Assembly (NCBI GenBank): GCA_001816475.1 | Contig: MHCC01000027.1 | Coordinates: forward strand, 75,312-116,549 | DNA length: 41,238 bases | DNA from: Candidatus Blackburnbacteria bacterium RIFCSPLOWO2_01_FULL_40_20 | Lineage (GTDB): Bacteria > Patescibacteriota > Microgenomatia > UBA8517 > UBA10165 | Direction of reading: 5' to 3' | In this document: positions 5,562 to 9,687 of the stretch, piece by piece | How positions within the stretch are numbered: position 1 is the stretch's first letter | Layout of the letters: the number at the start of each line of letters is the position of its first letter | The notes under the pieces: generated by a model | What the model saw: only the letters and a program-made list of their open reading frames with translations | What the model was told of the DNA's origin: nothing | Database searches by the model: none | Program-made: the position numbers and the translations under genes

Positions 5562-5642
5562 TGTACTCAAACGACTGATTGCTTTTTTTGATGGCCGTCT
5601 TGGACAACCTGAGCAATCAGTTTGAGTACAACCAGGGCGGCC
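5562..5642 (+). promoter_or_regulatory. Recombinase leader with two interleaved inverted repeats
   Basis: Arm A (5562-5583, beginning TGTACTCAAA) pairs with A' (5612-5630, ending TTTGAGTACA) over about 19 bp with one three-base bulge. Arm B (GGCCGTCTTGG, 5593-5603) pairs with B' (CCAGGGCGGCC, 5632-5642) over 11 positions, counting two G-U pairs. The order is A-B-A'-B', as at 4155-4204, with similar gaps (about 9, 7 and 1 bases). One base between A' and B' is too short for both full stems at once, so they are probably alternative folds. The recombinase ribosome-binding site (AAAGG) follows directly. It could also be a DNA site for the recombinase. Confidence 0.5.
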
Positions 5643-5654
5643 TTTAAAGGTTTT

Positions 5655-7391
5655 ATGGAAGAAAAACAAATCTATCTTCGCTATTTAGGATATGCGCGCA
5701 AGAGTTCTGAGGATAACAAGGAGCGGCAAGCGGCTTCTCTTCCAGAGCAACTATATGTGCTCGAAGGAATAAAAGCAAAACACACCCTAAATGTTGTTGA
5801 AGTTCTCCAAGAATCAAAATCTGCACATAAACCCGGGCGAGAAATCTTTAACAATATGCTTGCCCGAATAGAGAGTGGTGAAGCAAATGCAATTTTAACT
5901 TGGCACCCAAACAGACTTTGCCGTAATGCACTTGACGCAGGCCAGCTTCTTTATCTCATGGATGAAGACAAATTAGTCGAAATTCGCACACCTTCGCGGA
6001 CGTATCGAAATACCCCGGAAGATAAGTTTATGTTGACCCTTGAATTTGGTATCTCTAAAAAAGACTCAGACGATAAAAGCATTGTTGTTGAAAGAGGCCT
6101 AGAGAAGAAAGCAAGAGATGGTTGGAGACCAGGCGTTGCTCCTCAAGGGTATCTGAACGATAAAACAACCGAAAGTGGATTTAGGAAGGTACTTACCGAT
6201 TCAGAACGCTTCCCTTTTATCCAGAAAATTTTTGTGTTGTTTCACCAAGGTACAGCAGTCGTAGAAATACATAGATTAGCAAAAGATATATGGCATTATC
6301 GCTCAAGACAGAAGAAAAGAAGTGGAGGCAAACCACTTTCTTTGAGCATGATTTATAAGATTTTGACTAACCCTTTTTATTGTAAAAAGTTTGAATACCC
6401 AGAAGGAAGTGGAAAATGGTATGAAGGCGCACACGAACCAGCAGTAGACCAAAAGATATTTGACGAAATACAGGTTAAATTAGGCCGTAGAAGCCAATAC
6501 AAACTCCAACACCACAACTTTGCCTATACAGGCAGTATGGTTCGCTGTGGCTCGTGTAGCTCAAGCGTAGTAGCAGAACAAAAGTGGCAATGTATTTGCA
6601 CCAAATGCAAGCTTAAATTCTCGCTTACCAAGAAAAATAAGGAAAAATGCACTGGTTGTGGAACTCTTATTAAAAATATGGACGACCCAACCATTCTCCA
6701 CTACATTTATTACCGTTGCGGGAGAAAAAGGAATCCAAGTTGTAGAGAAAAGGCAGTACGAGTAGATAGGCTCGAGAAACAAATTGACGAAACACTATCT
6801 CAAATTGAAATCTCACCCTTGTTTATGGACTGGGCAGTACGCCAGATTATTAAAGACAATAAACAAGAGAAAACCTTCCAAGATGACACCACAGAAAACA
6901 TTAAACGAGGCCATAGCGATTGCCGGATTAAGCTCAACAACCTATTGCAACTCAAAATTTCACCAGCTAATCAAGACGGCAGCTTATTGAGCGACGAGCA
7001 ATACAAAGTTCAAAAAGAAACCTTGGAAGCAGAACTAAAGGGGCTGGGGAAACAGCTTATGGGTATGGACGAACGCTTAATTCGAGCAAACGACCAAACC
7101 GAGAAAGCGTTTACCTTTGCCACAAGAGCTAAAGAGCGGTTTGCAAATGGAGATATTAAAATAAAGCGAGATATTTTTATGGGACTTGGGTCGCACCTAA
7201 CCCTAAAGGATAAAATTGTGGGTTTTGACGCACCAGAATACATTTATACACTTAAAAAGATGAAAGAAGCGGAGCCAATTATCGCAGAACGGGTCGCACC
7301 TGAAAATCAGCCTGAATATACGCACCAAATGGAAACATATTTTGCCTCCAGTTCTACCTTGTTGCGGGGCCGGGAGTCGCGCCCGGCCTAG
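5655..7391 (+). CDS. Large serine recombinase (site-specific integrase)
   Basis: This 578-aa protein starts at ATG 5655, preceded by AAAGG; the TTG in the track lies inside the leader hairpin. The N-terminal resolvase domain carries the nucleophile in YARKSSEDN (Ser17) and conserved arginines (LTWHPNRLCRN). It is followed by a Recombinase domain (KARDGWRPGVAPQGYL...) and a zinc ribbon with extra cysteine pairs (VRCGSCSSS, CICTKCKLKF, KCTGCG, RCGRKRNPSC). A helical region follows, as in large serine integrases. The last ten or so codons and the stop are read antisense through the 3' exon of a tRNA gene (7362-7400), a strong hint that this enzyme integrated its element there. It is the rightmost gene of the element. 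Confidence 0.93.
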   Translation: MEEKQIYLRYLGYARKSSEDNKERQAASLPEQLYVLEGIKAKHTLNVVEVLQESKSAHKPGREIFNNMLARIESGEANAILTWHPNRLCRNALDAGQLLYLMDEDKLVEIRTPSRTYRNTPEDKFMLTLEFGISKKDSDDKSIVVERGLEKKARDGWRPGVAPQGYLNDKTTESGFRKVLTDSERFPFIQKIFVLFHQGTAVVEIHRLAKDIWHYRSRQKKRSGGKPLSLSMIYKILTNPFYCKKFEYPEGSGKWYEGAHEPAVDQKIFDEIQVKLGRRSQYKLQHHNFAYTGSMVRCGSCSSSVVAEQKWQCICTKCKLKFSLTKKNKEKCTGCGTLIKNMDDPTILHYIYYRCGRKRNPSCREKAVRVDRLEKQIDETLSQIEISPLFMDWAVRQIIKDNKQEKTFQDDTTENIKRGHSDCRIKLNNLLQLKISPANQDGSLLSDEQYKVQKETLEAELKGLGKQLMGMDERLIRANDQTEKAFTFATRAKERFANGDIKIKRDIFMGLGSHLTLKDKIVGFDAPEYIYTLKKMKEAEPIIAERVAPENQPEYTHQMETYFASSSTLLRGRESRPA

Positions 7392-7637
7392 GAGATTATG
7401 CTTGCTGTTTCTCCAATTACTTGGAGTGTCGGACTATCTCATCTCCGATATATATCGGAGTTTGGCGTATAGTCTCTACGGAGTCCTAGATCATTATCTT
7501 GCGATAATATTAAGGTTCCCTCGGGATTGCCCTTCGACTTCGATTAGGGTTTCCCCGATATAGCCAAATTATCATTTCAATGTTACCATCGAATGAGCCC
7601 ATTTTGAGCCTCCTGTGCAACTCTACACTACCCCGCA
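7362..7637 (-). tRNA. tRNA with CAU anticodon (Met or Ile2), split by a group I intron
   Basis: The 5' exon is 7607-7637 and the 3' exon 7362-7400, joined as 70 nt. The acceptor stem TGCGGGG/CCCCGCA is a perfect 7 bp. The anticodon arm after splicing is GGAGG-CTCATAA-TCTCC with anticodon CAT. The T stem CCGGG/CCCGG is perfect, the discriminator is A, and CCA is not encoded. The D stem is GTGT/GCAC with a six-base loop AGAGTT lacking the usual GG, and the T loop is CGCGACT instead of TTCGANN, so the normal D-loop/T-loop contact is lost. The anticodon stem lacks the three G-C pairs of initiator tRNA, so I favour elongator Met or Ile2. It overlaps the recombinase 3' end. It could be a pseudogene. 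Confidence 0.75.
7401..7606 (-). ncRNA. Group I intron (206 nt, compact IC3-like) in the tRNA anticodon loop
   Basis: Read on the minus strand, the intron shows the expected helices in order. P2 is CGATG-GTAA-CATTG with a GNRA loop. P3 is TTTGGC pairing with GCCAAA. P4 is CGGG/CCCG, with GAAA and CAAT joining segments around P5 (CCC/GGG). P7 is GACTAT/ATAGTC, P8 is CTCCGAT-ATAT-ATCGGAG, and P9 is CTCCAA-GTAA-TTGGAG. The intron ends in G and the 5' exon ends in T, as self-splicing group I introns require. It splits the anticodon loop between T33 and C34. There is no ORF inside. Its size is close to the well-known bacterial tRNA-Ile intron of about 205 nt. Confidence 0.9.
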
Positions 7638-7735: not shown

Positions 7736-7774
7736 TTGACAAATGGTATACTACTGTATATACTTTGGTATACC
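7736..7774 (+). promoter_or_regulatory. Promoter and operator of the RelBE-type pair
   Basis: A consensus -35 TTGACA (7736-7741) and -10 TATACT (7759-7764) are 17 bp apart. The sequence GGTATAC occurs at 7745-7751 and as the full palindrome GGTATACC at 7767-7774, flanking the -10 box; this is a likely operator for the antitoxin. Transcription should start only about five bases before the ATG at 7776, so the message is nearly leaderless. Confidence 0.7.
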
Positions 7775-7775
7775 T

Positions 7776-8060
7776 ATGAATTATGCAATCGTTACTGCAA
7801 AAGTAGATCCTCAAACTAAAAAGGAGGCACAAAAAGTGGCCAAGAAATTGGGTATTCCCCTCAGCGTAGTAATAAAAGCTTTTTTAAAGCAATTTGCAAG
7901 AAGTAAAGCAATTGAATTTTCAGCACGAGACGAAGAGCCCAATAAATACCTAAAATCCGTAATGATGAAAGCAGAAGAAAGCTATAAAAAAGGTAAGACT
8001 TCACCTGCTTTCACAACTGCTGACGATGCTGTAAAGTATCTTGAAGACCGCGGAATATGA
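7776..8060 (+). CDS. RelB/DinJ-family antitoxin
   Basis: This 94-aa protein starts at ATG 7776; the upstream ATG in the track lies in the promoter. It opens with a ribbon-helix-helix domain (IVTAKVDPQTKKEAQKVAKK then LGIPLSVVIKAFLKQF) as in DinJ/RelB antitoxins. The C-terminal half is charged and probably disordered until bound to toxin (KAEESYKKGKTSPAFTTADDAV). Its stop overlaps the toxin start in ATGA. It should bind its own promoter, where a GGTATACC palindrome lies, and neutralise the downstream RelE-type protein. Confidence 0.88.
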   Translation: MNYAIVTAKVDPQTKKEAQKVAKKLGIPLSVVIKAFLKQFARSKAIEFSARDEEPNKYLKSVMMKAEESYKKGKTSPAFTTADDAVKYLEDRGI

Positions 8061-8338
8061 CCATCAGATATAGTTCTGATTTTTTAAGACAATTAAAAAA
8101 ACTAAATGTCAGAGTCCGCAAAAGTTTTAAAGAAAAAATTACAACTTTTATTAAAAATCCCTTCAGCCCAGAACTTGACAACCACTCGCTCAAAAGGGAA
8201 TACCAAGGATATAGGAGTATTGATATTACAAACGATTACCGAGCCATATACCAAGAAAAGGTTGAAGGAGATGAGCTTGTTGCCTACTTTATTTCGATAG
8301 GAACACATAAAGAGTTATACGAGAAATCAACCTCGTAA
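8057..8338 (+). CDS. RelE/YafQ-family toxin (mRNA interferase type)
   Basis: This 93-aa protein has the RelE/ParE fold pattern: an N-terminal strand and helix pair (IRYSSDFLRQLKKLNVRVRK), the segment NPFSPELDNHSLKREYQGYR, then the strands SIDITNDYRAIYQ and AYFISIGTHKELY. The ending GTHKELY with His and Tyr is typical of YafQ/RelE toxins that cut mRNA on the ribosome. It overlaps the antitoxin by four bases. It lies just outside the integrated element, downstream of the tRNA. Confidence 0.88.
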   Translation: MTIRYSSDFLRQLKKLNVRVRKSFKEKITTFIKNPFSPELDNHSLKREYQGYRSIDITNDYRAIYQEKVEGDELVAYFISIGTHKELYEKSTS

Positions 8339-8823: not shown

Positions 8824-9687
8824 ATGGCAACCGAAAAGAACGTTTCTGAACTCATTAAAGACTTTATAACAATCCTCCAATCCCGAGGACGGGCATCAGC
8901 TACCATTTTAGCTTATCGAAAAGACTTAGAGCAACTTGCAAGCTCCTTGAGCGAAAAGGGTAAAACCACACCTGACTCTGTCCGTTCCTCAGATATTGAA
9001 GATTTCAAGACTACAATGCAAAAAGGCGGTTATACCGACAAATCGGTTTCTCGAAAGCTAAATGCAATCAAAACCTTCTTTACCTGGCTTGTTTCACAAA
9101 AATTAATTGAAAACGATCCTGCAGCCCCAGTTGCCCATCCAAAATACCAAAATCCTCCACCACGAATCTTGTCTCGTATGGAGTATAGAGCACTTAGAGA
9201 CGCCGCACGAAGCGATCTTAGAATTAGGGCAATTATTGAGTTAATGCTTCAAACTGGAGTCAGAATTGGAGAAGTTGCAAATTTGAGACTTGAAGACATC
9301 AGTGATAAAATTTTCATTCGAGCCTATGAGTCCCAACCACAGAGAGAAGTTCCGTTAAACGAAACAGCCCGGGACGCCTTAAATCAATATATTGCAATTC
9401 GTCCAAAGACGACAAGCGATCACATTTTTGTTACAAAGACGGGCAAGCCTCTCTTGGTTAGAAACATCAGAAGCGCAATTGATCGTTACTTTAGAGAAGC
9501 AGGGATTGAAAAGGCTAAGGTGAACGATCTTCGTAATACCTTTATTGTCCACCAATTGAAGTCTGGAGTTGACATCGTTACTGTTTCTAAGATTGCTGGC
9601 CACAAGAGACTTTCAACAACAGAACATTATCTTCAATTTATTGATAAAAGAGAAGGTAAAAAAGGGACAAAACTAGAGGAACTCTAA
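8824..9687 (+). CDS. Xer-like tyrosine recombinase with altered catalytic residues
   Basis: This 287-aa protein has the length and two-domain layout of XerC/XerD: a SAM-like N-terminal core-binding domain (about 1-100) and a catalytic domain. The first Arg (TGVRIGEV, R147), the second Arg (NDLRNTF, R237), His260 (AGHKRLSTTEHY) and Tyr269 are present. The first His of the HxxR box is Asn (N234), and the beta-hairpin Lys is missing (SQPQREVPL). So two of the six classic catalytic residues differ. It may still be the chromosome-dimer resolvase of this lineage with a shifted active site, or a different recombinase. It is preceded by a plausible promoter and followed by an AT-rich foldback. Confidence 0.85.
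   Translation: MATEKNVSELIKDFITILQSRGRASATILAYRKDLEQLASSLSEKGKTTPDSVRSSDIEDFKTTMQKGGYTDKSVSRKLNAIKTFFTWLVSQKLIENDPAAPVAHPKYQNPPPRILSRMEYRALRDAARSDLRIRAIIELMLQTGVRIGEVANLRLEDISDKIFIRAYESQPQREVPLNETARDALNQYIAIRPKTTSDHIFVTKTGKPLLVRNIRSAIDRYFREAGIEKAKVNDLRNTFIVHQLKSGVDIVTVSKIAGHKRLSTTEHYLQFIDKREGKKGTKLEEL

What the first reader, a model, noticed from the sequence alone, without database searches (positions are those of the whole stretch)
7362..7637. tRNA(CAU) gene split by a compact group I intron, antisense to a recombinase end
The helices P2, P3, P4, P5, P7, P8 and P9, a terminal G and a T before the 5' splice site can all be read from the minus strand. The flanks join to a 70-nt cloverleaf with a perfect acceptor stem. 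A -10 TATAAT sits in front of it. At 206 nt without an ORF it is among the small self-splicing introns. The split lies between positions 33 and 34 of the anticodon loop.
Basis: partly seen in the sequence, partly recalled or inferred. Interest (0 to 1): 0.85.

Follow-up and report, generated by a model that had tools for sequence, protein, structure and literature searches.

The report
Self-splicing intron in start tRNA gene
In this tiny uncultured bacterium the apparently only gene for the tRNA that starts every protein is cut in two by a small self-splicing RNA intron, so all protein synthesis should depend on that RNA cutting itself out; its relative in a sister genome has the exact three base changes that, in the laboratory, switch such introns from using G to using A.

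Summary
On the minus strand, 7637-7362 is a tRNA(CAU) gene split by a 206-nt ORF-less group I intron (7606-7401) between U33 and C34; RF00028 scores 76.8 bits, E 6e-18. In the same order, 18 genomes carry an intron at exactly this junction and 36 carry the same tRNA uninterrupted. A class-wide scan found about 79 such introns in Microgenomatia. Helices covary; P7, the U.G at the 5' splice site and P10 are conserved.

The host gene is the initiator tRNA, by orthology and elimination: it is the only CAU tRNA besides elongator Met, no uninterrupted copy exists, and TilS is absent.

The antisense recombinase belongs to a probable 12.7-kb element integrated at the tRNA 3' end.

Group I introns in tRNA-fMet are known from cyanobacteria, and tRNA introns have been mentioned for CPR bacteria: a new member of a known kind.

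The surprise is in a sister genome (Ca. Blackburnbacteria, L046/L170): its orthologous intron has C264-G311 instead of the G-C guanosine site, and a terminal A instead of G. That is the engineered adenosine-specific combination, said not to occur in nature.

The parts
7607..7637 (-). 5' exon of initiator tRNA(CAU), ends in U33
7401..7606 (-). group I intron, 206 nt, no ORF, terminal G at 7401
   Evidence: RF00028 76.8 bits; empty sites in 36 relatives; covarying helices in 72 introns
7362..7400 (-). 3' exon of the tRNA, begins with anticodon C34-A35-U36
7596..7602 (-). internal guide AUGGGCU: GGCU pairs with the 5' exon (P1, U.G at splice site), AUG with the anticodon CAU (P10)
   Evidence: P1 U.G in 72/72; P10 positions paired in 93% of cells
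7470..7476 (-). P7 5' strand; G7474 corresponds to Tetrahymena G264 of the guanosine site
7431..7436 (-). P7 3' strand; C7432 corresponds to Tetrahymena C311
7654..7659 (-). TATAAT, probable -10 box of the tRNA gene
   Evidence: exact in 55/110 orthologues vs about 5 in shuffles; the generic promoter scan did not list it
7329..7349 (-). hairpin after the tRNA, possible weak terminator
   Evidence: RNA fold; not found by the terminator scan
5622..7391 (+). large serine recombinase whose last codons are the antisense of the tRNA 3' half
   Evidence: Resolvase 4e-15 and Recombinase 1e-5; homologues in seven other genomes end in the same tRNA
7360..7370 (-). GCCCCGCAACA, candidate attachment core, repeated at G000:C27:69974-69984 outside the window

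Best explanation
This is the initiator tRNA gene of a Microgenomatia (CPR) bacterium, interrupted between U33 and C34 by a compact group I intron. The precursor is transcribed from its own promoter. The 5' exon end GGCU pairs with the intron guide to make P1, with a U.G at the splice site. Exogenous guanosine held by the P7 G-C pair attacks after U33. The terminal G then takes the same site, the anticodon CAU pairs with AUG of the guide (P10), and the exons join to a 70-nt tRNA. Shown: gene, boundaries, empty sites, conserved and covarying helices, conserved splice-site bases, absence of another initiator gene in the assembly. Inferred: transcription, guanosine-dependent self-splicing, initiator function. 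The recombinase on the other strand belongs to a mobile element that uses the tRNA 3' end as attachment site (inferred) and is not part of the intron.
For: CM hit; spliced tRNA recognised; 18 intron-bearing and 36 empty sites at the same junction; 72 introns with P7 100% paired, P3 98%, P9 99.7%, many two-sided changes, U before the splice site in 72/72, final G in 71/72; no other CAU tRNA but elongator Met; no uninterrupted AGGCTCATAAYCY in G000 while intronless G002 has one; TilS absent; orthologues of sister orders have C1xA72; D-loop 18 and T-loop 55 covary, A18 with G55 in 44 and G18 with U55/C55 in 58 of 105 tRNAs; -10 conserved.
Against: No RNA data and no splicing assay. Two classical initiator marks are not met in the window tRNA (three G-C pairs in the anticodon stem, purine 11 - pyrimidine 24). 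Rfam's tRNA model does not report even the intronless orthologues L064/L065 at its cut-off. The genome is 98% complete in 27 contigs, so a missing second gene is not excluded.
Confidence: 0.93

Rival explanations
1. Same intron, but the host tRNA is a tRNA-Ile2 (CAU, read as AUA after lysidine modification) or a spare elongator, not the initiator.
For: Lacks the G-C triplet and the R11-Y24 pair of classical initiators (sequence).
Against: TilS absent and tRNA-Ile(UAU) present; elongator Met is another gene; orthologues carry C1xA72; there is no other initiator candidate.
Confidence: 0.05
2. The tRNA is a decayed copy and the intron a dead relic, kept as attachment site of the mobile element.
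For: T loop without UUC, recombinase overlap, poor tRNA model score.
Against: The odd T loop coevolves with the D loop in many genomes; single copy of an essential gene; helices and splice-site bases conserved; present without the element in most relatives.
Confidence: 0.02
3. The intron is carried and spread by the recombinase element rather than by its own reverse splicing or by recombination.
For: The recombinase gene ends in the tRNA in 8 genomes. The intron tree does not follow host families: f1 introns fall in four places.
Against: An intronless genome (L062, G022) has the recombinase, and most intron-bearing loci do not. The candidate att core lies at the acceptor end, downstream of the intron.
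Confidence: 0.05

Closest known systems
[quoted passage not shown] Biniszkiewicz 1994, Paquin 1997, as cited in PMC8450103 and PMC5733544)
   Same: Group I intron in the anticodon loop of the initiator tRNA gene
   Different: Some cyanobacterial ones carry an ORF (PMC5733544); here none does among 72 of 175-266 nt. Exact cyanobacterial junction not checked here.
Azoarcus tRNA-Ile(CAU) group I intron
   Same: Compact (about 205 nt from own knowledge), CAU tRNA, short P1
   Different: From own knowledge it interrupts after U36 with guide GUG; here after U33 with guide AUGGGCU; host here is the initiator
tRNA group I introns of CPR genomes mentioned by Lui et al. 2021 (PMC8172020)
   Same: Same phylum; tRNAs hard to detect because of group I introns
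   Different: That paper gives no tRNA identity, junction or structure in its main text; here initiator, 33/34, empty sites and covariation
Engineered adenosine-using Tetrahymena intron (Been and Perrotta 1991, cited in PMC5192423 and PMC9971707)
   Same: L046/L170, the window intron's orthologue in Ca. Blackburnbacteria, has the same three bases naturally
   Different: The window intron itself keeps G-C and final G; adenosine use by L046 is untested

Membership tests
Group I self-splicing introns (RF00028) | Covariance model score over the curated cut-off | tested here: met
   76.8 bits vs 50
Group I self-splicing introns (RF00028) | Core helices P3-P9 with P3/P7 pseudoknot, conserved and covarying | tested here: met
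   P7 100%, P3 98% canonical. P6a was weak in the alignment (54%, shuffled 49%)
Group I self-splicing introns (RF00028) | U before the 5' splice site in a U.G pair; final G | tested here: met
   window yes; 72/72 and 71/72
Group I self-splicing introns (RF00028) | G-C guanosine-binding pair in P7 | tested here: met
   G7474-C7432 in the window; 71/72, the exception is L046
Group I self-splicing introns (RF00028) | Protein-independent splicing with guanosine | not testable with these tools
   needs an in vitro assay
Group I self-splicing introns (RF00028) | Subgroup (such as IC3 of other tRNA introns) | not tested
   no subgroup models at hand
Bacterial initiator tRNA | CAU anticodon, not elongator, not lysidine Ile2 | tested here: met
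Bacterial initiator tRNA | C1xA72 mismatch (weak first pair) | tested here: inconclusive
   U1-A72 in the window; C1xA72 in orthologues of sister orders
Bacterial initiator tRNA | Three G-C pairs 29-41, 30-40, 31-39 | tested here: not met
   A29-U41, G30-C40, G31.U39 read from the sequence
Bacterial initiator tRNA | Purine 11 - pyrimidine 24 | tested here: not met
   U11-A24 read from the sequence; initiator status therefore rests on orthology and elimination
Adenosine-specific group I intron (for L046 only) | C264-G311 in P7 together with final A | tested here: met
Adenosine-specific group I intron (for L046 only) | Splices with adenosine or ATP, not with guanosine | not testable with these tools
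   needs an in vitro assay

The most novel reading that the evidence does not exclude
The window intron's orthologue in Ca. Blackburnbacteria NC_groundwater_332 (L046 = G001:C2, L170 = JACPEJ010000004.1) is a natural group I intron that splices with adenosine/ATP instead of guanosine. P7 G264-C311 is C-G, the terminal G is A, a second P7 pair changed in a compensated way (U267-A308 to C-G), and it sits in what is apparently that genome's only initiator tRNA gene. A group I ribozyme has thus changed cofactor in nature, by the route engineered in 1991.
Probability: 0.6. Interest if true: 0.9.

Novelty: new member of a known kind. Interest (0 to 1): 0.58.

Why it matters
The apparently sole initiator tRNA gene depends on a ribozyme, and ARAGORN and the Rfam tRNA model miss it; such genomes seem to lack a start tRNA unless the intron is recognised. 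The family (72 distinct full-length introns, one insertion site, ORF-less, patchy) is a clean natural data set for intron gain, loss and spread without a homing endonuclease. If the Blackburnbacteria orthologue splices with ATP, the statement that adenosine-using group I ribozymes are not observed in nature (PMC9971707) falls, and a cofactor switch in an RNA enzyme could be studied between near relatives.

Tried and rejected
Intron boundary one base later (C|A...GC|A): gives the same product for the window but fails for relatives whose intron starts with A or U. Pseudogene: rejected because of elbow covariation and single copy. tRNA-Ile2: rejected because TilS is absent. Further adenosine-type introns: a family-specific pattern found only G001 in 373 genomes of the class and none in viral contigs. 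A looser pattern in 239 genomes of the phylum gave four hits. One of them (L228) looked like P7 but has no Rfam match and lies within a 318-codon open frame, antisense to it; the other three were judged by eye from the printed match only. Six of the 85 stretches are chance matches outside the tRNA. The generic promoter scan did not support the -10 box; the comparison of relatives did.

Full report
OBSERVATION. On the minus strand, 7637-7607 and 7400-7362 are two halves of a tRNA with anticodon CAU; 7606-7401 is a 206-nt insert. cmscan gives RF00028 at 7605-7410, 76.8 bits, E 6e-18. ARAGORN sees nothing unspliced and tRNA-Met(cat) after splicing.

COMPARATIVE PROOF. The window lies in a 958-kb genome (98.3% complete). 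A DNA search over 57 genomes of the order found the tRNA in 54. Reading each one gave 18 with an intron and 36 with none, always at exactly the same junction. A pattern scan of genome contigs returned 85 stretches: 6 are chance, and 79 are the same intron in initiator tRNAs of Microgenomatia, mostly named Levy-, Gottesman-, Roizman-, Woese-, Davies-, Ames-, Shapiro-, Collier-, Chisholm- and Blackburnbacteria. In an alignment of 72 distinct introns (175-266 nt), P1 has U.G in 72/72, P7 is 100% paired, and P2, P3, P8 and P9 exceed column-shuffled pairing with many two-sided changes. The guide AUGGGC(C/U) pairs with the exon GGCU (P1) and with the anticodon CAU (P10).

WHICH tRNA. G000 has 42 tRNAs over the Rfam cut-off. 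Among those read, one has CAU, an elongator Met. The split gene is the only other CAU tRNA found. TilS is absent in G000 and G001, and tRNA-Ile(UAU) is present, so Ile2 is not needed. tRNAscan-SE 2.0 authors report the same UAU-for-CAU replacement in other bacteria (PMC8450103). No uninterrupted anticodon loop AGGCTCATAAYCY exists in G000, G001 or G005, while intronless G002 shows one. Orthologues in sister orders begin CGCGGGG and end CCCGCA, the C1xA72 mismatch of initiators; the window's order changed to U1-A72. Two other initiator marks are not met (G-C triplet, 11-24), so initiator identity rests on orthology and elimination. The T loop CGCGACU looks defective, but across 105 tRNAs base 18 and base 55 change together: A18 with G55 in 44, G18 with U55 or C55 in 58; the remaining 3 look misread by the script. 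The elbow is remodelled, not lost.

MECHANISM. The best reading is ordinary two-step group I splicing: guanosine bound at P7 G-C attacks after U33, then the terminal G occupies the same site and the exons join, guided by P10. The cryo-EM base triple of the guanosine site (PMC10020454) maps onto G7474-C7432 here. Steps not shown: transcription, splicing, use of the tRNA.

THE SISTER INTRON. In G001 (L046; same sequence as L170, JACPEJ010000004.1, Ca. Blackburnbacteria) P7 reads GACACCA/AUGGUGC, so G264-C311 is C-G, and the intron ends in A. Of 82 distinct 3' ends, 78 are G/C/G, 3 have a 5' P7 strand that was not read (with C and final G), and one is C/G/A. All other scored helices of L046 pair, bar one P2 mismatch. 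In the intron tree it is the sister of the window intron (support 0.86), so the change seems to lie on its branch; by identity alone its nearest is L157. PMC5192423 states that the G-C pair is completely conserved in group I introns and that C-G abolishes guanosine recognition, citing Been and Perrotta 1991. From memory of that abstract, their double mutant preferred adenosine and ligated exons once the terminal G was changed to A. [quoted passage not shown] That three co-adapted bases arise as error or decay in an apparently single-copy essential gene seems unlikely, but only an assay can settle it. Rfam scores L046 at 44.9 bits, below its cut-off, so such introns may be overlooked. Searches for more found none.

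CONTEXT. The ORF 5622-7391 is a large serine recombinase. Its last codons are the antisense of the tRNA T arm. Homologues in seven other genomes end in the same tRNA half, one of them intronless. GCCCCGCAACA at the tRNA end recurs at C27:69974, followed by CTTCGACTCGCTTCGCTCGCTCAGTG, much like the natural flank after the tRNA in L059. I infer a 12.7-kb integrated element using the initiator tRNA 3' end as its site.

DISTRIBUTION. Presence is patchy even within genera: g7 has one of three with the intron, g10 and g36 one of two. Introns of family f1 fall in four places of the intron tree while their exons stay alike. This points to horizontal movement of an ORF-less intron, but the tree is built on 189 columns and weakly supported.

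VERDICT. Real and correctly read; a new member of a known kind. The natural adenosine-type candidate next door is the part worth an experiment.

Noticed in passing
L046:1541-1759 (minus), = L170; G001:C2:38596-38888: Orthologous intron with P7 C264-G311 and terminal A, the engineered adenosine-specific combination, in the apparently only initiator tRNA gene of that genome.
   Followed up: partly
window 5622-7391 and G000:C27:69974-82681: Probable 12.7-kb element with a large serine recombinase whose 3' end is encoded by the antisense of the initiator tRNA; 11-bp repeat GCCCCGCAACA at both ends. Seven other genomes have the same overlap.
   Followed up: partly
L002:1501-1807 (G000:C1:57139-57445): A second group I intron in this genome, 62 bits, splits what reads as tRNA-Asn(GUU); no other tRNA-Asn was seen among the tRNAs read.
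   Followed up: partly
window 7362-7637 and orthologues: G18-U55 of the tRNA elbow is replaced by A18-G55 in 44 of 105 orthologues, with or without intron.
   Followed up: partly
L163, L172, L185: Collierbacteria-type initiator tRNAs with the same intron have a very different T arm (GGGAGCGUAACCCC-like).
   Followed up: no
L040 (G000:C1:4000-19500): 23S and 16S rRNA genes lie here with weak group I intron matches in or next to them, as common in CPR; tRNA-Ile(GAU) between them.
   Followed up: no
window 7743-8338: RelB/YafQ-type toxin-antitoxin pair directly upstream of the tRNA, followed by a DivIC-like gene and a tyrosine recombinase at 8824-9687.
   Followed up: no
L175: Amesbacteria contig where the 3' exon breaks off after CATAATCTTCC; assembly break or a disrupted initiator gene.
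   Followed up: no
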